From Daphnia pulex (taxonomy: Eukaryota; Arthropoda; Branchiopoda; Diplostraca; Daphniidae): DNA of 64,000 bases. The notes beneath the pieces are model-generated. The model searched no databases, was not told the origin of the DNA, and saw only the letters and a program-made list of their open reading frames with translations. The DNA lies in assembly GCF_021134715.1 (NCBI RefSeq), contig NC_060028.1, positions 4,052,501 through 4,116,500 on the forward strand, given 5' to 3'. The position numbers and the translations under genes are program-made. This document shows positions 3,404 to 57,690 of the stretch, one piece after another (the stretch's first letter is position 1; every line of letters starts with the position of its first letter).

Positions 3404-5814
3404 GTTTGGTCGTTAGAAAAGGAAGTGAATCGGACGTTGCTCCTCTCAAGGAAACCGTTAAAATTCTTGTGGACTATTTTTGCGTAACATTGGCTGTAAG
3501 CAATATTTCTGAATAATTTTTTACTTATTTTGCATCTGTTCTGCAGAATCAAGTGCAAGTTTGCATGACACTGGAGATCTTGCCCCAACATCATGCTGTT
3601 GTTAAAGGTGGCAATTAAATGAATTTGCAGCACATCCGCACAGTCACTGGAACTACTATTATGTTTCCTGATCTGACTGATCCGCACATTCCTCCTCTTT
3701 GTAAAAATACCATTTCAATCAGAGGGTTGTTGGATAGTATACTTTAAGCTCATTTGATGCTGATGTTAAACATTTCATTCTACTACTTAGTGTCTTGTTA
3801 GTTTTACCTAACTCTAAATATTAACAGGGGGTTCACTTCCTCTTATGTTGACGTTTGATTTACGTGAAGAAGCAGAGCCTGATCCATTGACTGTTTCAAA
3901 GCTGGTCGAAAAATATGATGTCATTATCTCGATTAAGCCGAAACCCAAGCTCTCAGTCAAATCGGTGAACATTCGTGGTTATGAGCGTAATGCTGGTAAG
4001 TTGTGTGAATATCATGTATTGGAAATCGGTAATTAATGTCTCGCGTCTTTGCTAGGTAACATCTACGAAGCCCGCCTTATGATCTTGGGGTGTTCAGATG
4101 GCGATGAGAAGGTGGTTGATTCGATTCCATCAGCATACATAGTTACTTCAACAGATCCTTCGTTTAGCTTCCGTAAGCTCAATTAATATCGAGTTTTAAT
4201 TATTTATAATTATTATAGCATAAATAATTCGTGATTGTAATAGGTCATACTCTCTGTCAACTCAACAATTTACTCCGTTTACCACCAAGGTGGATTCGGT
4301 GTTACTCGTCACCCACATCTCCAACGTCCGCATGCTCATCAACGTCGCCATTGGGATATCACAATATTCAACCAATGGCTTTGACTTACAACTGCTTCCC
4401 TCAAGGATTTCCAACTCGACCGCCTCAGGCTTATGGGGTTGTTCCTGGTATTCATCCTGCTGCTGCCCAGTTTCAGCACCGTAATACGCTTTTGGCTAAA
4501 AATCTGCAAGCCTTCAATGCCTACCAGACTCATTTGTACCCAGACGTGTACACTGACTTTCGTCAAGGTATATATGTAAAAAAATTATCGGCTGTTCAGT
4601 GGAATACTTTCTTTTTTCCAAGCAGGCCTGGATCGAAATCGAGCAGTGGAGTCTCAAGCCCGACTTTTCCGTCTGGCTCCATAAGTCCTTGTGATTTCCC
4701 TTTCGGCCATCAAAATACTATGCTGCATGATTTCACTGGCAAGTTTTTCTTTGTTTCAGTATGTGTTATTAATTAGTGTAATTTATTATAAATTGTAAAA
4801 TTGAATTGTAAAGCAGAACTTCAAAACCGCATGGCATCCCAGATGAACGATGGGTTGGCTAACTGGGAACGAGATCGTCGTGTGACCTCTTGCCCTGATT
4901 ATGAGGAAAAACAACTTTTGGCTTCGAATGGTAATTCAATTTTATTTCTTATTTTTGATTTTTTTTCTTCCAGTATTCTTAGACCATCCTTCTTATTCAA
5001 TTGTACACAAAACATAATCTTTATCTGCTAAGAAAATTGTACTGCATGAAATTGTTTGAATGAATGGTAAAACAGTGTTATAATTGTCCTATTCTTTAAA
5101 GCCATGAGACAAACTCCTAATCCATCGCAAGCTCGGGTGCCAACTCCTACTTGGGCTGGTTATGGTTTCAGCAAATCGTCGCGCCAGACTTCGACATCCG
5201 AAAAGGGATTATTTTGCGATACGCCGGATTCAACTACTTCCATTAAGGTATTGCATATTTGTTTTTTTAATCAGCCGAAGGCATTTAGTAATTTGGTAAC
5301 ACTAACAGAATGGGACCCATCAACGCCGTAGTCCGTGGGATGACCCTATTTCTTCTGTGAAAAATGGACCAGACTTTGGCTTCAGTAGCAATTTGATTGA
5401 CTCTGTCTCGTCTTTACCGAAACCCAGCGTTGCTGCTGCTAAAGACCTTTCTACTCTATTGCATTCCATGGGACTCACTAAATATATCGGTAACATTCTT
5501 AATTTAAGTTGTACTGAATGGATTTTAAAATATTGCTTGATTGAATAGAACTTTTCGTTGAACACGAAATCGACTTGGAATTGTTTAAAACTCTGACGGA
5601 GAATGAACTTCGTGATCTTGGCATTCACGCCTTTGGCGTGCGCAGACATATGCTACTCACTATTGCTGGTAAGTTTACACAGTTACTAGTTTTTGTTTGA
5701 AGGAACTTTTATTTTGCGCTTGTGTTTGAAGAGCTGAACAAGAAGACCGTATTTTCTGGAAGCGCTGCTCCGGGAGCCGAGCGTCGTGCTGCCGTAGCAT
5801 CCAAGGACGTTTAA
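3404..5814 (+). pseudogene. BicC: Bicaudal-C-like KH/SAM gene, 5'-truncated and decayed
   Basis: Exons at 3404-3495, 3547-~3766, 3828-3995, 4056-4172, 4244-4567, 4626-4738, 4814-4930, 5102-5247, 5309-5489, 5549-5668 and 5732-5814 encode a Bicaudal-C relative, an RNA-binding translational repressor with N-terminal KH domains and a C-terminal SAM domain. KH pieces include LEILPQHHAVV, GSLPLMLTFDL, IISIKPKPKLSVKS and GNIYEAR. The SAM domain reads HEIDLELFKTLTENELRDLG and GVRRHML. The first KH domain and start codon are absent. Defects: TAA at 3615-3617 in the GXXG loop region; a second in-frame TAA before AHLMLM (about 3744); a donor site there that appears lost (ATG followed by TTAAAC); and a frame mismatch between the exons ending at 4567 and starting at 4626. 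The 4738 junction would use a GC donor. The last five exons join cleanly, so a short SAM-containing product is conceivable. Confidence 0.8.
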
Positions 5815-8286: not shown

Positions 8287-9085
8287 TTCCGCACCCAGGG
8301 TAAACAGAATATTTTTCATTGTATATTGAACTTCTAATAATGTTCAACTCATTTGTAATAAAGTGGCTTAGAAAAGAAATTGAACGCAGGCTAGACCTTG
8401 TTGGCCGAATCAAACATGAACCAAAACTTGTTTCTGAAGCTAGTTCAGCTGATACTCACAACCCTGAAACCTTTTGCCGGATGCAAGCTATGGATGACAT
8501 AAAGATTTTAGGTGCAGTCATTTTCACTATTAATTTGCATCTTAGTTAATATACAATTTTAATAACTGTAATTTTGAATTTTGTATGTCTGTAGAAATTC
8601 AATTGCAAGCTGCAGATCCCAAAGCAGGGAGAATGCCCAATGAAAACCTCAGCCCCTTTTTAATGGCTCAAATTAATACTGCAATGTGTGTGCATGCAAA
8701 CTTGGCACCGTCAAACAGCTACTGCATGAAGAGCTTGCCATTTCATACCCAGACAAGACACCTTTTACGAACACCAACATTGGCCAGTACCACAAATCCC
8801 TGAAACAAGCTATGAAATCTACCCTGAAAGTTTGACCTTCAACCAACCTGCTGAAAGCTATGATCTTCATCCATATTTTCCTGTTACACCATTTCTTCCA
8901 GTTGGCATTCATGAAGAAGATGAATTTCAAGGTTTCCCTCTGAATTCCGAAAATGATTCTACGCCTGAAAATTTCATGATGTACACCACAGAAAACGGCT
9001 CATTTTTTATTGAAAATATGCTTTCGGAAATCTCTGTATTTGCTTACAACAACTTGCCGAATTGGGGATTCTCGCATCCTTTGGG

Positions 9086-9514
9086 TGTTGAAATATGTTC
9101 TGTAGCAAATAATAAGTAGGGTGCTGTTTAGCCCTACTGTCTGTCTCTACCTTCTTTACCCTGCCCTAGCAGACACTCAGCTCAGGCCTCGTGTGTTATA
9201 TCGCTCACTCTCTCTTTCTGACAGTCACCTAAAGTAGTCACAACTTATATTGTCTATACAGTACTAAAGGTATCTCGATATTCCATCTAGTGTAACCCTA
9301 TCTTCTAACTCACAGGTATATATGCTTACACACGTAATTGCTTGTCTATCCATGTATGTGAATATTTGTATGTGTTGTTGGACAGTTTGTCCTATCCAAG
9401 TGACGATGTGCGTCAGCACATGTTTGCCCTATGGGAGAGCCATAGAGATGAGAATACAGAGTTCCTTGCTGAGATTGAAGTAATAAAGTGTGTTCCTTGT
9501 TTTATTCTTCAACA
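9086..9514 (+). repeat. 5' LTR of the copia element
   Basis: It begins TGTTGAAATATG and ends TATTCTTCAACA. AATAAAG, near its 3' end (about 9483), is the likely polyadenylation signal. It is identical to the 3' copy at 14166-14594. Confidence 0.95.
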
Positions 9515-9530
9515 GGTTATGGGCCCAGTC
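9515..9530 (+). other. Primer binding site, initiator tRNA-Met type
   Basis: GGTTATGGGCCCAG directly follows the 5' LTR. It is complementary to the anticodon arm of eukaryotic initiator tRNA-Met (which contains CTGGGCCCATAACC). This is the internal half-tRNA priming used by copia. Confidence 0.85.
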
Positions 9531-9553
9531 CGCAAGACCTGCGAATAAACAAG

Positions 9554-12500
9554 ATGGCAAATCTAAACCAGCAAGAAGGAGAGAATATCTCAAAGGATGT
9601 TAGTCACATTCCGAAGTTTAATGGAAAGAACTACCCATCATGGAAGTATGGAGTATGGCTGCTGTTCCGTCAGCATGGCCTCACAGAGATTGTTGAGAAC
9701 AATGCCACCAGACCAGCAGAAGTAAGACAAAGTCGTAACACAGTTGATTACATTAAAACTTATGCTCTAAATTTCTTACTGATAAGGCGACCAATGAAGA
9801 AGGTGTGGTCACAAATGGAGCTGTAATTGCTGCGTGGAATCGAAAGGACATTCTCGCAAGTGGTTTTCTGTATGCCACTGTAAATGAGGAGATGAGAGAT
9901 ACGCTCATCAACTGTGAAACTGCATCAGGCATGTGGAAAAGGCTATCCGATCAGTACATGCAGAATGCCACAGACAACAAGCATTTGCTGAAACAACAGT
10001 TCTTCCAACTACAATTCAGTCCTGGCCATGAGGTAATGCAGCATATCACAGCTATAGAAGCAATAGCAAAGCAGCTCAAAGACCTTGGAGAACCTGTCCC
10101 TGAGATTGACATCGTAAACAAAATCATCTGTACATTACCACCCAGCTTTCGAAACTTTCTGTCGGTATGGGACAGTCTACAAGAAGATGAAAAGACGGTG
10201 AGCTTACTCACAACCAGACTTTTGAAAGAAGAGAGAACAAACAAGAGGTTCAACAATGGTAAAAGCGACCCTGCAGATGAAGCCTTTTTCTCACCAAACA
10301 CTCAGCCAAACGAGTACAGACAAAGGCCACAGAACTACAGAGGAAGCCAACGTGGCAACAGAGGACATCGAGGATCGAGAGGTGGTTGGAGAGGTCAACC
10401 TGATGCAAAAAGAAGAAGAATGGAGTGTCACTACTGTCAAGAAGAAGGCCATTTCATTGCAAACTGTCGCGTTAGAATTCGAGATGAAAAGCAATCACAC
10501 GCTCATGTGGCAGAATCCAAGAAAGACCAGAAAGATCACGACTTTAGCTTGCAAAGCTCTACTAGAAATCGAAATGTTAGCTTTTCTGTCAGAAGCAATC
10601 TTGACTTCTTCGCAGACTCTGGTGCCACGTCTCATATGTCAGATCAACAACAGTTCTTCGACACACTCGAGATGATTGATTCAGGAACTCGAACAGTATC
10701 TGGAGTTGGTGGTGTCTCTCTTCCTGTTCGTGGACGAGGCGACATAAGAATTGAAACTACGGTGAATGGAACAACCCGAACTGGACTAATAAAGGATGTG
10801 CTGTATGTACCAAATCTTGGCACCAACCTATTCTCAATCGGCACAGCAACTGAGAACGGAACTGAAATACACTTCAACAACAACCAAGTCCATTTTTCAC
10901 GCGAAGGAGTCATATTTATGGTCGGCCAGCGAGCCGGAAGAGGCCTTTATCATCTTAACATCAGAGTGGTTCCAAAGGAAAAGGCAATGACGGGTAAATA
11001 GACAATCTTTTTTTTTTACTAAACATGCATATGTAAGAAATTTCTTTTTGGTTAATTTGAAACGCTCATTGGAATCTTAGCCTTGTATACTATCTGGTCG
11101 GTCAGCCCCAAGCTGTTAATAGATATATTAGATACATCACAGATTGATATAGACAATTTTTCTTTTTCTACAGCTGGAAGTAAGGAAGCTGAAATCAAAC
11201 TGTGGCATGAACGCCTTGGCCACATCAGTAACACTACAATCTGGAAAATGTTTCGGGAGAAAGCAGCTGATGGCCTAAATCTTACAACACGTGGCGACAC
11301 TCCAACCCCACTCTGCGCAGATTGTATGAAGGGAAAAATGACTCGATTACCTTTTCCATCTGGCCGTAATCGGGCCACTGACATAGGACAACTCATACAC
11401 TCTGATGTATGTGGACCCATGCAAGTTACCTCACCAGGAGGAGCACGCTACTACGTGATTTTTAAGGACGACTACAGTGGATGGACTGTAGTCCACTTCA
11501 TTCAACGCAAATCCGAAGTAGAAGAGAAGTTTAAAAATTATACAGCTCGACTGCGTGTTGAGAAGGGAAAAGCCGTCAACACACTCAGAACCGACCGAGG
11601 AGGAGAATATGTGGGGAAAAGCTTCAACGACTGGCTAGAAAGTGAAGGTATTCGACATGAGATGAGTGCAGCCTATACCCCACAACAAAATGGCGTCTCC
11701 GAAAGATATAACAGAACTGAAATGGAGTCAACTCGCTGCCTACTATTCGCCAGAAAAGTAAAGTTTATTTTTTTTGTTTTGTATTATATACATCATCCAA
11801 TAAGCTCTTTTTCTCTCCATCTCAAGGTTCCTATAGAACTTTGGGCTGAGGCTGCTAATTACTCGAATTACATCCGGAATCGAGTACTGTCAAGCACTGG
11901 TACAGTCACCCCTTACGAAATCTGGTTTGGAAAGAAACCAGACCTTTCCCATCTCCGAGTTTTCGGCTCACAAGCATTCATTCATATTCCGGACGAAAGA
12001 AGAAAGAAACTAGATGAAAAAAGTATGGAAGGGATTCTAGTTGGATATTGTGACACATCCAAAGCCTACAGAGTCTGGGATCCAGTTACCCGAAAAGTGA
12101 AAATCAGCCGTGACATTAGGATCAACGAGGGTGCGATTCCAGAAACAACACATAGCGCCCCAGAACTTGATGATCCAGTCACCTTTCTGCGATTCATGCT
12201 ACCAACGAGCCACATACAGATTCAAGAACCGGTACATGAGATCCCACAAGTAGAAGAACCGGACAATCCACCAGTAGAAGCTCCAAACATCAATGTTCCA
12301 GTCTGCGATGCAGTGCAAAATGATGAACAGCCTGAAGCAGTGGAAATCGAAGATGAACCAGCTGCCTCTAAACCACGCTCTACTACCAAGAAGATGCTCG
12401 AGCCAACAAGACACTCTAGGAGAATTGAAAATCAAAAACGAGGTGTGAGTCTTATGTCTTTGGAACAATACAGCGACGATCCTGATGAGCCAACAAACTA

Positions 12501-14199
12501 CAACGACGCACTTTCATCTCAGGACGGAATTCTATGGAAGAAAGCAGTGGACGAAGAGTACTCATCCCTAATTGAAAATGGAACTTGGACACTAGTACCA
12601 CTTCCGTCAAACCAAGTCCCAATAAAATGCAAATGGGTCTTCAAGATCAAACCTGGTCACAATTCTGTTGCTGCAAGATACAAAGCTCGCCTGGTAGCCA
12701 AGGGCTACAGCCAAAGAAAAGGAATCGATTACAAAGAAACATTTGCGCCAGTCGTAAAGCACACTTCACTTCGATTGATCCTGGCCATAGCAAGTAAAGA
12801 AGACCTCGACATGCTACAGCTAGATATAAAGACGGCGTTTCTTTATGGTGACCTAGAAGAAGACCTGTATATGGAACAACCGGAAGGATACCTTGACGAG
12901 AACAAATCGGACTATGTATGCAAACTGAAGAAATGCATTTATGGCCTCAAACAGGCACCAAGAGCCTGGCATCAAAAGTTCAATGCTTTCCTACTGAAGT
13001 TTGGTCTCACTCAAAGCGCAGCCGACCCTTGCATACTATTCCGCCATCAACAGGGAGAAATAACGATTGTGGCAATCTATGTTGACGACGGATTAGTAAT
13101 GAGCAACAAGAAACATCTTCTTACGGAAATGACTGAGTATCTTGGCACTCACTTCCAGATTCGATGTCTACCAGCAGATCGTTTCATTGGACTGGATATC
13201 ATAAGAGATCGGTGTCAGCGCAAGATATATCTAAGCCAGCATCATCTGATAACAAAGGTGTTAAAAAGGTACAGCAGTAACCTTTTTTTTTTGTTTTGTT
13301 TTGTTTGTTTTATAAAGTGTTTGCAATATATATCTCACCCCCTCTTTTACCTAAGCAGATTCAATCTTGCTGAATGCAATTCAAAAGTGATACCGGCAGA
13401 TCCAAACAGTCGTCTCACATCACAAATGTGTCCCACTGATGAAAGAGCGATGGAGGCGATGACAAAGGTCCCTTACCGTGAAGCAGTAGGCTGCCTTATG
13501 TACATTATGGTACTATCCCGACCAGACATCGCATTTGCGGTGAGCCAAGTTGCCCAACACTGCCAGAACCCAGGGCCAGCTCACTGGAAGGGTGTTCAGC
13601 GAATTTTCTCCTATCTACATGGAACCTCAGACTACGGGCTCTGCTTCAATGGAAACGACCATGACGAGCTAATAGGTTACACCGACGCTGACTACGCGGG
13701 AGATTTGGATACCAGAAAATCAACGTCTGGATATGCCTTCATCTACCAAGGTGGAGCAGTGTCATGGGCCAGTCGGCGACAGCGGTGCACCTCTCTGTCT
13801 ACCACAGAGTCAGAATTTGTGGCTGCCTGCGAAGCAGCTAAGGAGGCTGTTTGGATCCAACGCTTACTCTCGGAGATCAAAAATTGTGAAGCCAAGACCG
13901 TTCAAATTCGATGTGACAACCAGAGCTCAATAAGTCTTATCCGAAATCCAGAGCATCATCAAAAGACTAAACACATCGAAGTAAAATACTTTTTTGTTCG
14001 TGACCAGCAAAAAGCCGGTAGGATCGATGTAACTTATATCGGCACTGAAGACCAGCTGGCCGACATGCTAACAAAGCCACTACCAAGACCTCGGCTGGAA
14101 GACCTACGCGGAAGGATTGGTGTGGTACTCGTGAAAGATTCAGCTACTTATAATTTGAGGGAGAATGTTGAAATATGTTCTGTAGCAAATAATAAGTAG
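9554..14199 (+). CDS. copia gag-pol polyprotein, split by four apparent introns
   Basis: Coding segments are 9554-9721, 9787-10993, 11174-11757, 11827-13268 and 13359-14199. Their lengths (168, 1207, 584, 1442 and 841 nt) keep one frame and give about 1413 codons, ending 34 nt inside the 3' LTR. Domains in order: Gag with zinc knuckle CHYCQEEGHFIANC (about 10428), aspartic protease DSGAT (about 10617), the HHCC pre-integrase zinc region (LWHERLGH, CADCMKG), integrase core with Asp in HSDVCGP, Asp in RTDRGGEY and Glu in NGVSERYNRTEME, reverse transcriptase with YVDD (about 13081), and RNase H with YTDADYAGD and TESEF. The gaps (65, 180, 69 and 90 bp) all begin GT and end AG after a T-rich tract. 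They interrupt conserved regions exactly. The 69- and 90-bp gaps also lack stops, so unspliced RNA would insert 23 and 30 residues there. No disabling mutation is seen apart from these. Confidence 0.93.
14157..14165 (+). other. Polypurine tract of the copia element
   Basis: GAGGGAGAA abuts the 3' LTR. This is the expected plus-strand primer position. Confidence 0.75.
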
Positions 14200-14594
14200 G
14201 GTGCTGTTTAGCCCTACTGTCTGTCTCTACCTTCTTTACCCTGCCCTAGCAGACACTCAGCTCAGGCCTCGTGTGTTATATCGCTCACTCTCTCTTTCTG
14301 ACAGTCACCTAAAGTAGTCACAACTTATATTGTCTATACAGTACTAAAGGTATCTCGATATTCCATCTAGTGTAACCCTATCTTCTAACTCACAGGTATA
14401 TATGCTTACACACGTAATTGCTTGTCTATCCATGTATGTGAATATTTGTATGTGTTGTTGGACAGTTTGTCCTATCCAAGTGACGATGTGCGTCAGCACA
14501 TGTTTGCCCTATGGGAGAGCCATAGAGATGAGAATACAGAGTTCCTTGCTGAGATTGAAGTAATAAAGTGTGTTCCTTGTTTTATTCTTCAACA
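14166..14594 (+). repeat. 3' LTR of the copia element
   Basis: It is identical to the 5' LTR at 9086-9514 over all 429 bases by direct reading. It contains the last codons and the TAG of gag-pol (14197-14199). Confidence 0.95.
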
Positions 14595-14767
14595 TTGGGA
14601 TATGTGCTAAAGAACAAACGAGGATTGTTCGGATGTTTCACTCTTCACTCTGGAAAGGCTTGGTAAATTGGTATTAAGCATGATTTACTGTTTCTCAATA
14701 ATTTTAAGTTATTTTACTTTTCAAGTTATGTCAAATTTTCGCCCTACTCAATCAAATTCTCGAGTAT

Positions 14768-24454: not shown

Positions 24455-25601
24455 TTCAAGAAAGCCGTATGACCAACCGACTGGACCTTTGCCAGTTTAT
24501 CGATGCACGATGTCGCCACCGTTCGACGTCACCGGCGTCGATTTCGCTGGGCCAGTTCATTATATACGTGGGTCTAACGCAAAATCTTGGATTTGTCTCT
24601 TCACATGCGCGGTGACCCGCGCTCTTCATTTGGAATTGGTGCAAACGCTGACAGCCGTCGGTTTTCTTATGGCGTTCAACCGTTTCGTATCAAGATTTGG
24701 GATTTGTCGAATAGTCTATTCAGACAATGCGAAGACATTTCACCGAGCCAACAAGGATTTAGCCGAAATTTGGAAAGGGGCCGAACCAGAAATTTTGACC
24801 GATCTTGCCAACCGCGGAATCATGTGGAAATTCATCCCAGAAGGTGACTCCTGGTGAGGTGGCTTCTGGGAGCGAATGTTAAAAACTACGAAACAAGCAC
24901 TAATCAAGATAACCGGAACGGCTCATTTAACCGAAGAGGAGCTCCGAACTACACTTTGCAAAATAGAAGCAGTAGTGAATTCGCGCCCTCTTACGTTTGT
25001 TTACAACGACCATGAAGAAGTGCAGCGACTGATTGATGACTCGACCCCAATCACTCAATCCGCAACGGAAACTAATGCAACTCAAAGAGAGCTGGTTGAG
25101 CGAGTTGAATATTATGGGAAGCTCACAGCTGATTTCAAGAAAAGATGGCATACAGAATATCTGCAAGAACGAGCTCTTCATTTTAAGCATCAGCATCGAG
25201 TTGAACCTATTCGCATAGGAGAAGTTGTCCTGATTCAAGAAGACAATATGAAACGTCGGCAGTGGGACATTGGAGTCATCAAGGAGACCATCCCGTCATC
25301 TGACGGTGTCGTCCGACAAATTCTTCTCCGAACTGCTTCCGGCCAATTGCGCCGACCCGTGCAAAGGCTTTGTGAGCTGGAAATTAATGAAAACAATCCA
25401 TGGGAGAATGAGCTTCTATCGGTTGTTCAGAATGACGCCGAAGCGGAGGAGATTCATCCGTCAGTGTCATTTGCCGACGCGATCTCACAACCGGAAGAAA
25501 ATCAACCGGAATTATTGCAAGACGTCCCTCAAGACGTCCAGCAAGGGGGGGAGTGTAGAAAACTCCGTCGTTGCGAGAGCCGGCCTGAAGGTGCGCCCTA
25601 G
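24455..25601 (+). pseudogene. BEL/Pao integrase and pol C-terminal remnant
   Basis: The frame reads PPFDVTGVDFAGPVHYIRG, CLFTCAVTRALHLELV, then YSDNAKTFHRA and IPEGDSW. After a TGA at 24855-24857 it continues GGFWERMLK, TTLCKIEAVVNSRPLTFV and WDIGVIKE. These are the integrase core (D, D, E) and the C-terminal domain typical of BEL/Pao pol. The TGA stands where W is usual (PWWGGFWER), so a single nonsense change broke an otherwise open frame of about 380 codons. Everything 5' of integrase is missing. Confidence 0.88.
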
Positions 25602-26134: not shown

Positions 26135-26329
26135 TCAGCTCATTTCCGCAACGCTTCCCTCGGCATCCGCGCTTTCGGACAGAACTTTCAACAAGTTTCT
26201 GGCGTAAACTTTTAATCGGATATTCGCTTCGCTTTTGTCGTCTGCTTCTTCTAGGCTTGTTGTCAGAATAAAAATGGCTTCGGCACTAGTATTTCTATAC
26301 AAAAAAAATTTTATTGCGGGGCGTAACAA
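26135..26329 (-). other. Coding-like minus-strand fragment, unidentified
   Basis: The frame reads FILTTSLEEADDKSEANIRL, then KVYARNLLKVLSES. It has a coding-like composition but no recognised domain. It lies among the RNase III remnants and might belong to one of them. Confidence 0.25.
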
Positions 26330-26574
26330 TTTGAGTTAGGGCACACAAAGGCTTCGAGAAATGGCAAAACGGCAGAAGTTTTTTTTTTCAAATATAACAT
26401 TTTTTAGCGTAACAATTTGACTCAGGGCACAAAAGGCTTCGAGAAATGGCGAAATGGCAGAAGTTTTTTTTCAAATATCAAATTTGTTTAGCGTAACAAT
26501 TTTAGTCAGGTCACAAAAAGGCTTCGAGAAATGGCGAAACGGCAGAAGTTTTTTTTCAAATATAAATTTTTTTA
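26321..26574. repeat. Tandem repeat, three ~85-bp units
   Basis: Units start GCGTAACAATTT at 26321, 26407 and 26491. Each contains GGCTTCGAGAAATGGC, then GGCAGAAG and a T-run. Units differ by only a few bases. Confidence 0.9.
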
Positions 26575-26689
26575 GTGACGACGTAACGTTTTTTCTGAAA
26601 GGGGGTGGGGGTAGCTTCGGTTATCATGCAGACTTCATCTTCTTTCCGCCTGTTCCGCCGGCATTACTGCTTCCACAACTGTTCATAGT

Positions 26690-54829: not shown

Positions 54830-57690
54830 GATTAGTGATAAATTGGGAGTTTCGTTATCAACAGTTTCACATAGGAAAAAAGACACCAAGAAACTGGTGA
54901 TGTAGAAGAAAAGATGGATCGGGAAAAATCACACAAAAAGATGAAGAAAATATAGTTTTCATTGATTTAGTGAAACCTATAACAACGGACGAAGAAATCT
55001 CAGGTAAAATCAATTAAAAATTTCCTCTAAATACAAAACTTTAGAATCTTTCATTTGTTACGAAAGATGTAGCCCAAATAAATGCCTCAGCCTCTACGGT
55101 CATTCGCGTGCATAAGAAGCACAATATTCATCGACGTAGGGCGGCCAGAAAATTATGCAGCGCTCAATTGTTGCCCGTAGTTTCGTGAACGAGCCTTAAG
55201 AATGGTGGCAAGATGTGAAAGCGCGTGAAAACGGCCCACATAAATCAAGAAATCAACAAAGCGCTCGGAAAGAAATAGCTCTTCAAGGTGGTTGATTCCT
55301 TTCTCATCAAGAAACCGGGCCTTAAACTTCCACGCGACGACTTCCTGCAAGAACTGGTGTAGCGGTTCAGTGGCCAATTCACGACCAAGGTCACCAACAT
55401 CCGATCCAGGCTTGATGCTGCTCGTTGCTGCCACCCTGCCGCTGACACTCCACTGGATTTCCCCCCCCCCCCTTATCCTCCTTCGTTCGTGTAACTGTTC
55501 CTGAAATTGTTGCTCTCATCAAAGATTGCCCCTCAAAGTCCTCGTCCCGTGATCCAATTCCTACTTCCCTAGTCAGGAAATTAGCTGATTTTCTTGCTGT
55601 TCCGATAACTGATGTGGTCAACATGTCCTTGTCTCTTGGTGTTTTTCCTGATGAAATGAAGCTTGCCTATGTCACTCCTCTTCTAAAGAAGCCCTCCCTC
55701 TGCCCTGATGACCTCAAAAATTATCGCCCCTTCTCTTTTCTCTCTTTTCTTTCCAAGCTAGTCGAGCGAGTGGTGTTTAAACAACTTGCCAACCACCTCA
55801 TCAAGTGCAACCTGTATGTACCTGTGCAGTCGGCCTACATACCAAACCAGTCCAATGAGACGGCTCTCATGAAAGTCGTAAACGACATTCTTGTCGCAAT
55901 CGAAAATGGTGACGGTACTGATTTGGCAATACTTGACCAAAGCGCTGCGTTTGACACTATAGATTATTCTATACTTCTTAACCGTCTTAACGCTTGTTTT
56001 GGCATCACTGGCTGTGTCTTGTCTTGGTTCACATCCTATCTTTCTCACCGTTCTCAATCTGTCTCTATTGCTGGTGTCACTTCAGCAGCCGTCTTGCTTC
56101 TTTATGGCATGCCTCAGGGGTCTGTACTTGGCCCCATTCTTTTCACTCTCTAAAACAGCCCAATTCATTCCATCTCTTTGAAGCACGGCGTCTCTGATCA
56201 CTTCTACGCCGATGACGAGCAGATCTACTTGTCGTTTCCTCTCATTCCGGACCATTCTGCCCAGCTCCGTACTTATTCCATGGTCTCAAACTGCGTTGGC
56301 GAAACTAAGTGCTGGATGGCTGACAACTTCATCCAGTTTCACGACTCAAAATCCGACGCGCTGGTTTGTTATTCTAAGAGCAGCCGCCTGAAACCGGCCA
56401 ACATTTCTCTTGCACCGGGTGAGGCATCAGTCACTCCATCTGACGCAGCGCGACAACCTTGGCGTATCACTCGACACCCACCTTACCATGCAAAAGCAGA
56501 TTTGGAAATTGTGCAGCTCCGCCTACTACCAGCTGAAGAAGATTTCCAAGATTCGCAAGTACATCACTCGCGCTACTGCCGCTCAACTTGTGTCAGCACT
56601 GGTCATATCCCACATTGACTATGGTAACTCTCTTATCGCCGGTTTCCCTGCCAGTCGCCTTCATCCACTGCAAAAGGCTCAATATGCTACTGCCCGCGTC
56701 GTCACTGGTGCTCGTCGTCGTGATTCAATGACGCGACACCTGAAAAACCTTCATTGGCTTCTTATCAGCTATCACATCGATTTAAAGATTGCTGTCCTAG
56801 TGTGGAGCTGCCTCAACGGTTGTGCTCCGTCAAACCTGTCTTCTCTTCTCAATCGAAGCAATCTTGGCATTCGCACCCTTCGTTCTTCTTCCGCCCCCTC
56901 TGCTCTATATGACCTCTCTCCTCCTTCTACTCGCATAAAATCCTACGACAGACGCGCTTCCACCAACTATGCCCCCACTCTGTGGAACAGCCTGCCCGTT
57001 TCCATCCGCTCCAGTCCCACCCTTCAAATATTTCGTTCCAATCTTAAGACCCACCAGTCCACCTATTTCATGAAGCTTTCAATAACTAGTTTCCCTGTTT
57101 CAATCGAGAGTTGTTTACAGCGCCTTTGGTCATTTGTCAAAACTAATGGAAAAGGCGCTTTTCAAATTGAATACATTATTATTATTATTAAGGTGTTATC
57201 TTTTCCGAAGAAAAATCATTCGGGTATTATTAGAAATGATTACATTATGGATTTCCTATTTCATATAATTCATTTTTCCGTGTGTTGTAAGTTCGGATGA
57301 ATGCAGACGCGTGTTTGCCTGTCGAGAAAACGGAACGCGTTTTCAAGAAAACCATGTGCAGGTCAAACCCAGACGTTGAAGATAAACTGTGCCTGTATGG
57401 ACTTGGTTTCCGCAAGTGGAGATGGGAATTTCGTCCGCATAAATGGGAGGCTGGATGGTGAAAAATATCTTGCTATCACTGGAGATCTTTTGCATCCGTA
57501 TATCTGTACAAGATTCCCAGGGAAGCGAGTCAAATTCATCTAAGACAGATCCCCAATCCATCAGGTTATCAAAATCAAGGAGTGGTTTGCAGACCATGAA
57601 ACAAAAAGAAAAGAAAACTGGCTCACTTGGCCAGCTAAAGAAGCTGACATGAACCCCATCGAAATTGTTTTTTGGGGATAAAGTTAAAGA
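54830..57690 (+). pseudogene. Tc1/mariner transposase remnant split by an L2 element
   Basis: The left part (54830-55145) reads KLGVSLSTVSHRKKRHQETG, then DVEEKRW, and after an intron-like gap DVAQINASASTVIRVHKKHN and IHRRRAARK. This is the helix-turn-helix and linker of Tc1-like transposases. The right part (57270-57690) keeps the catalytic domain: SSDECRRVFACRENG with the first Asp, VRINGRLDGEKYL, a QDRSPIH-like second Asp box (preceded by a stop), WFADHETKR, then WPAKEADMNPIEIVFWG with the third acidic residue. Stops and frame changes separate the blocks. The L2 element at about 55190-57190 lies between the two halves. Confidence 0.78.
55190..57190 (+). mobile_element. L2-clade non-LTR retrotransposon, 5'-truncated
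   Basis: Reverse transcriptase reads PDDLKNYRPFSFLSFLSKL, AFDTIDYSILLNRL, GMPQGSVLGPILF and FYADDEQIYLSF, followed by TQRDNLGVSLDTHLTMQKQI, ISHIDYGNSLIAG and WNSLPVSIRSSP. The 3' end carries the L2-type tail sequence (GGAAAAGGCGCTTTTCAAAT) and an (ATT)n run. Defects: in-frame TAG at 55378, TAA after GPILFTL (56152), and a 1-nt frame change near 56450. The endonuclease half is missing, so only about 2 kb of ORF2 remains. Confidence 0.92.

What the first reader, a model, noticed from the sequence alone, without database searches (positions are those of the whole stretch)
9554..14199. Recently transposed copia element whose gag-pol carries four spliceosomal-type introns
Gaps at 9722-9786, 10994-11173, 11758-11826 and 13269-13358 all have GT-AG ends and T-rich 3' tracts. 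They fall inside conserved regions (Gag, the end of the protease part, integrase, reverse transcriptase/RNase H linker), and removing them leaves coding segments whose lengths keep one frame throughout. The LTRs are identical, so this copy was made recently, by reverse transcription of an RNA that still held the introns. Elements that move through RNA normally lose introns. Either the packaged genomic RNA escapes splicing as a regulated step, or the family gained introns. Daphnia is known for recent intron gains.
Basis: partly seen in the sequence, partly recalled or inferred. Interest (0 to 1): 0.88.

Follow-up and report, generated by a model that had tools for sequence, protein, structure and literature searches.

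The report
Intron-bearing copia jumping genes in Daphnia
A young jumping gene in what is probably the water flea's genome carries four ordinary-looking splicing introns inside its protein-coding region, and sister elements show that copies are usually made from unspliced RNA while spliced RNA is only now and then copied back, so these elements keep introns that RNA-borne elements are expected to lose.

Summary
Window 9086-14594 is a complete copia LTR retrotransposon: identical 429-bp LTRs, a 5-bp target duplication, a primer site. Its gag-pol is cut by four GT-AG gaps. Two relatives in the same genome (dS around 1, dN around 0.1) have gaps at the same four sites with diverged sequence; in the better-kept one all four lengths would break the frame. 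Gap 1 (in gag) is older: of 31 copia loci examined for that join, 21 have a gap there, 7 lack it, 3 are undetermined. Gaps 2-4 were seen only in the window's lineage. Splicing is shown indirectly for intron 1 in two sister families: in each, one near-identical, LTR-bounded copy with a target duplication lacks exactly the GT..AG segment. In the larger family 21 of 22 places keep the intron, and 10 of 11 intron-bearing copies tested carry their own 5-bp duplication. So unspliced RNA is the usual template there, though spliced RNA can be used. Most likely spliced RNA is the mRNA and unspliced RNA the genome. How the RNA is sorted is unknown, and introns 2-4 have no direct splicing evidence. Intron-bearing LTR elements are known in plants; the searches made here listed none for animal copia.

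The parts
9081..9085 (.). 5' target-site duplication TTGGG (repeated at 14595-14599)
9086..9514 (+). 5' LTR, 429 bp, identical to the 3' LTR
9515..9528 (+). primer-binding site GGTTATGGGCCCAG, directly after the LTR; match to the anticodon arm of initiator tRNA-Met is recalled, not tested
   Evidence: the same motif is seen in two other families
9554..9721 (+). exon 1, start of gag (56 aa)
   Evidence: matches in relatives; no Pfam match
9722..9786 (+). intron 1, 65 nt, GT-AG, phase 0; the old site shared by many copia families
   Evidence: precise loss in two sister families
9787..10993 (+). exon 2, rest of gag and protease region
   Evidence: Retrotran_gag_2, Pol_BBD
10994..11173 (+). intron 2, 180 nt, GT-AG, phase 1; interrupts the frame with a stop
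   Evidence: same site in relatives; a 97% identical protein P0001 ends in the same residues read from the intron start
11174..11757 (+). exon 3, gag_pre-integrs and integrase core
11758..11826 (+). intron 3, 69 nt, GT-AG, phase 0, no stop in frame
   Evidence: same site in relatives at 70 and 67 nt
11827..13268 (+). exon 4, SH3-like and reverse transcriptase
13269..13358 (+). intron 4, 90 nt, GT-AG, phase 2, no stop in frame
   Evidence: same site in relatives at 85 and 80 nt
13359..14199 (+). exon 5, RNase H region to the stop codon, which lies inside the 3' LTR
   Evidence: no Pfam match; RNase H by position, recalled
14157..14165 (+). polypurine tract GAGGGAGAA before the 3' LTR
   Evidence: read by eye
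14166..14594 (+). 3' LTR
14595..14599 (.). 3' target-site duplication TTGGG

Best explanation
The element is a young Ty1/copia LTR retrotransposon whose gag-pol is divided by four spliceosomal introns. Its transcripts have two fates. Spliced RNA is the mRNA for Gag-Pol. Unspliced RNA, which here can encode only a short Gag fragment (ATG 9554 to a stop ending at 9826), is what is normally packaged, reverse transcribed and inserted, so introns pass from copy to copy. Shown: anatomy; intron sites conserved in relatives; purifying selection on exons; intron-bearing insertions with their own target duplications in a sister family; precise removal of intron 1 in two sister families. Inferred: that the window's own four introns are spliced, that spliced RNA is the Gag-Pol mRNA, and that sorting of the two RNAs (slow splicing, a separate RNA pool, or capture before splicing) keeps most templates unspliced. 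Introns 2-4 look like later gains of this lineage. Intron 1 is an old feature of this copia group that has been lost at least twice within families.
For: Same four gap sites in both relatives with diverged sequence. Exons under purifying selection: against the C12 relative, ten aligned stretches give dN 0.038-0.217 with dS 0.52-3.6, dS not computable in one of them (30 codons); against the C8 relative dN is 0-0.249 with dS 0.34-3.0 over eleven stretches. Intron 1 site: gap in 21 of 31 loci, absent in 7, undetermined in 3. Gap sizes in 71 paired exon 1-exon 2 hits fall into two classes, 19 at -6 to 24 nt and 52 at 64 to 512 nt, none between. In the gag-only family 21 of 22 places keep the intron and one lacks exactly the 510-nt GT..AG segment. 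10 of 11 intron-bearing copies tested have a perfect 5-bp duplication. A second family shows the same precise loss in one of three copies, that copy with identical LTRs and a TSD. Three of the four intron lengths (65, 69, 90) are near the 63 and 77 bp medians reported for two D. pulex assemblies (PMC5427498, passages).
Against: No RNA data: splicing is inferred from DNA copies. No spliced-derived copy of the window's own family was found; it has one copy and no solo LTR in the search, so introns 2-4 rest on site conservation alone. Gaps 3 and 4 are open in frame in this copy, and intron 2 of the C8 relative is 69 nt, a multiple of three. Both relatives are broken copies; the C8 one has damaged 3' splice sites at introns 1 and 4. 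One of 10 flank pairs has no matching duplication. Spliced RNA can be packaged, so sorting is not absolute.
Confidence: 0.84

Rival explanations
1. Only intron 1 is a real intron; gaps 2-4 are insertions or fast-evolving coding linkers of this lineage.
For: Gaps 3 and 4 are in frame and open in this copy; direct loss copies were seen only for intron 1; gap 2 of the C8 relative is 69 nt.
Against: Gap 2 brings a stop; gaps 2-4 are GT-AG at the same sites in the C12 relative, with lengths 73, 70 and 85 that would break the frame; exon matches resume on both sides.
Confidence: 0.08
2. Introns are kept because copies arise by DNA duplication or gene conversion, not through RNA.
For: Some copies are identical; one of 10 flank pairs tested lacks a matching duplication.
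Against: 10 of 11 intron-bearing copies tested have perfect 5-bp duplications, all ten different in sequence, and the window copy has its own.
Confidence: 0.03
3. The template is antisense RNA, which the spliceosome does not recognise, as proposed for Penelope elements (PMC3846280, passages).
For: It would explain retention without any sorting.
Against: An LTR element needs a sense RNA with primer site and polypurine tract, both present in the usual order; two insertions derive from RNA spliced in the sense direction.
Confidence: 0.03
4. The gaps are chance debris of a dead copy.
For: It is one copy in the assembly.
Against: Identical LTRs, open exons, and the same gap sites in relatives.
Confidence: 0.02

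Closest known systems
Ogre (plant Ty3/gypsy) and its spliced intron
   Same: LTR retrotransposon with an intron that is spliced, yet present in genomic copies (named in PMC3735527 and PMC12786077, passages)
   Different: Plant gypsy element that splices between ORFs; here a copia element, probably of Daphnia, with several introns inside gag, integrase and RT regions, and an old shared gag intron
BARE1 and EVADE (plant copia) splicing for subgenomic Gag RNA
   Same: Copia elements; separate RNA pools for translation and copying in BARE (PMC3735527, passages)
   Different: [quoted passage not shown] here removal of the gaps would join Gag to Pol, and the unspliced RNA cannot give full Gag. The EVADE comparison rests on one sentence of a review
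Penelope-like elements with introns
   Same: Invertebrate retroelements that keep spliceosomal introns (PMC3846280, passages)
   Different: Not LTR elements; retention is ascribed there to an unusual mechanism, perhaps an antisense template
Cer1 of C. elegans and retroviruses
   Same: Unspliced RNA is exported and packaged despite splice sites (PMC10309623, passages including the abstract)
   Different: There Gag is made from unspliced RNA; here Gag should need splicing. No CERV or Rev-like gene was looked for
CoDpu copia clade of D. pulex
   Same: Daphnia copia elements (PMC2996953 and PMC3587641, passages)
   Different: Neither main text contains a word starting intron or splic; membership in the clade was not tested

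Membership tests
Ty1/copia LTR retrotransposon | LTRs starting TG and ending CA, short target duplication | tested here: met
Ty1/copia LTR retrotransposon | order Gag, protease, integrase, RT, RNase H, with copia-type RT | tested here: met
   Retrotran_gag_2, gag_pre-integrs, rve, RVT_2 in order; protease and RNase H by position only
Spliceosomal intron | GT-AG ends at a conserved site in relatives, sequence diverged | tested here: met
   the C8 copy has damaged 3' ends at introns 1 and 4
Spliceosomal intron | precise removal from RNA | tested here: inconclusive
   met through DNA copies for intron 1 in two sister families; no test for the window's own four introns
Introner (mobile intron family) | near-identical intron copies elsewhere in the genome | tested here: not met
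   intron 2 found only itself; introns 1, 3 and 4 were not searched genome-wide
Ogre | Ty3/gypsy type pol | tested here: not met
   RVT_2, with integrase before RT; that this order marks copia is recalled
BARE-type subgenomic Gag splicing | splicing gives a Gag-only frame | tested here: not met
   exon frames and lengths would keep one frame through Gag-Pol
CoDpu clade | clustering of RT with published D. pulex elements | not tested
   no published RT sequences were compared

The most novel reading that the evidence does not exclude
In this animal copia group splicing of the gag intron is a conserved switch between mRNA and genome: the unspliced RNA cannot make Gag and is reserved for packaging, the reverse of the retroviral scheme. 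Selection then keeps the intron although precise loss copies keep arising.
Probability: 0.3. Interest if true: 0.88.

Novelty: new variant of a known kind. Interest (0 to 1): 0.76.

Why it matters
[quoted passage not shown] Here is an LTR group, probably in Daphnia, in which one genome holds intron-bearing insertions, precise intron-loss insertions and lineage-restricted intron gains side by side. That makes the spliced-to-unspliced template ratio countable, and makes it testable how a retroelement splits its RNA between translation and packaging.

Tried and rejected
Chance debris, DNA-level duplication and antisense templating were considered and are scored as rivals. An intron-borne packaging signal that is strictly required was rejected: two spliced-derived insertions and several intronless families exist. 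Introner origin was rejected for intron 2 only. A viral-contig scan found no relative. The protein search gave P0001-P0056, used only for P0001 and for two Daphnia magna names. The 17-row RT tree has only 3 starred branches of 13; it shows intron 1 on both sides of the midpoint but does not fix the number of losses; the intron state of rows L052-L058 was carried over from gag loci of the same element by their coordinates. A run of 8 or more T within 35 nt of the 5' splice site in introns 2, 3 and 4 came up in 46, 345 and 228 of 5000 shuffles, so it is only suggestive.

Full report
What is there. Window 9086-14594 is one complete copia element: two LTRs identical over 429 bp, TSD TTGGG, and GGTTATGGGCCCAG straight after the 5' LTR (the tRNA-iMet match is recalled). 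It is the only full copy found in the 133.19-Mb, 13-contig assembly, with no solo LTR found; the tool gives lower bounds. The assembly size fits Daphnia pulex (recalled). The only hits of the gag search that carry an organism name are two from Daphnia magna, so the genus is likely and the species is not proven.

The four gaps. All are GT-AG. Exon frames and lengths give phases 0, 1, 0, 2 and a total divisible by three. Pfam domains fall in copia order on the separate exons. Gap 1 shifts the frame and gap 2 brings a stop. Gaps 3 and 4 are in frame and open in this copy, so the window alone does not prove them.

Close relatives. A DNA search with the RT piece found two other loci at 81% identity: C12:5.19 Mb (L010) and C8:0.58 Mb (L029, L031). 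Both have gaps at all four sites. In L010 the gaps are 65, 73, 70 and 85 nt, all GT-AG. In C8 introns 1, 3 and 4 are 64, 67 and 80 nt by the boundaries used, introns 1 and 4 with damaged 3' ends, and intron 2 is GT-AG and 69 nt by my count of the stretch printed. Between the window and the relatives introns 1, 3 and 4 are 64-70% alike; shuffles scored as high in 0 and 0 of 200 for intron 1, 4 and 0 for intron 3, 9 and 16 for intron 4. Exons are held by purifying selection, dN mostly about 0.1 with dS around 1, stretch by stretch. Both relatives also share a fifth gap in exon 4 (605 nt starting GTAAGT in C12, 91 nt with a changed 5' end in C8) that the window lacks. More distant copia loci lack gaps 2-4 and this fifth gap, for example L011, L012, L015, L018 and L019, where matches run on from exon 2 to exon 5. 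Parsimony then makes introns 2-5 gains in this lineage (inference).

Intron 1 is older. Among 31 loci examined for the exon 1 / exon 2 join, 21 have a gap beginning GT at that site, 7 join with 15-30 nt of in-frame sequence between the matches, and 3 had no exon 1 match. Twelve further loci had no exon 1 match and were not counted (two of them are parts of the C8 relative, whose exon 1 is in L031). Some of the 21 are near-identical copies of one family, the exon 1 match of L037 is weak (E 0.14), and the C8 relative's AG is damaged. Pairing of hits by coordinates gave 71 pairs: 19 with -6 to 24 nt and 52 with 64 to 512 nt, none between (typed rows). Of the 52, 14 are one family. A tree of 17 RT rows (window plus 16 of 27 loci offered; broken or short ones dropped) places intron-bearing families on both sides of the midpoint, with at least two changes among 14 scored rows.

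Signs of splicing and of unspliced templates. A gag-only copia family has 22 places matching exon 1 - intron - exon 2: 20 at 100% and one at 93% with the intron, and one, C8:3686472-3686902, without it. That copy is 99.8-100% identical outside the intron, has identical LTRs of about 200 bp and TSD GTCAC, and lacks exactly the 510-nt GT..AG segment. Of 11 intron-bearing copies whose flanks were read, 10 have perfect 5-bp duplications, all ten different: 9 of 10, and L060. A second family has two copies with an 86- or 90-nt intron and one, C8:5499 kb, without it. The three are 97.7-100% identical elsewhere in the stretches compared, and the intronless copy has LTRs identical over 344 bp and TSD ATCAT. 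One of the intron-bearing copies, C10:7620 kb, has an open frame of 1409 aa and TSD GTTAA. These two intronless copies are natural products of the intron-reporter experiment: the RNA was spliced and then inserted. They also show that spliced RNA can be packaged, so the intron is not strictly needed. The ratios, 1 of 22 and 1 of 3, are small-sample, and the second family was picked because it shows a loss.

A further sign for intron 2: protein P0001 (source jgi), 97% identical to exon 2, ends with the same residues read from the start of intron 2. So another sampled copy carries the gap at that site.

How it most likely works. Transcription from the LTR gives one RNA (inferred). Unspliced, it can be translated from ATG 9554 only to a stop ending at 9826, so Gag-Pol should need splicing and the unspliced RNA should be left for packaging. 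Retention over long times is shown by site conservation at dS around 1. The sorting step is not shown. Slow splicing, a separate RNA pool as in BARE (PMC3735527, passages), or help with export as in Cer1 (PMC10309623, passages) are all possible.

What is known. Plant LTR elements generally lack introns, with Ogre and EVADE as exceptions (PMC12786077, passages). Penelope elements can keep introns (PMC3846280, passages). Two papers on Daphnia and crustacean copia contain no word beginning intron or splic in their main text. The searches listed no report of introns in animal copia gag-pol that I recognised. I saw listings and passages only, and subscription papers and Repbase were out of reach, so novelty is provisional. 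Drosophila copia's spliced Gag RNA is recalled, not looked up.

Verdict. The kind (intron-bearing LTR retrotransposon) is known; the multi-intron animal copia with an old gag intron and precise-loss sisters is a new variant.

Noticed in passing
L013 near 3790-3860 and L020 near 4660-4755: Two further intron-like gaps, one in gag (GTATTC..CCCAG) and one in integrase (GTTTGG..GCTAG, with the same stretch in L022); read by eye, and L013 is a broken copy, so tentative.
   Followed up: partly
window 10994-11173, 11758-11826, 13269-13358: Runs of 8-10 T lie within 25 nt of the 5' splice site of introns 2, 3 and 4 but not intron 1; meaning unknown.
   Followed up: partly
window 8730-9085 and 14600 on: The element sits in an open frame: with one TSD kept, the empty site reads 140 aa without a stop, perhaps a host exon.
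   Followed up: no
L060 463-2625: A gag-only, 2.16-kb copia element, with what looks like the end of the RNase H region after gag; 20 places identical at 100% over the stretch searched: a young non-autonomous family.
   Followed up: yes
L022 4124-4733: A further insert of roughly 500 bp sits beside the integrase gap and by eye has inverted ends; perhaps a small DNA transposon.
   Followed up: no
window 55446-57300 and 24858-25601: ORFs that by eye look like a non-LTR reverse transcriptase and an integrase of another LTR element (labels recalled).
   Followed up: no
window 26321-26575: An 85-bp tandem repeat, three copies.
   Followed up: no
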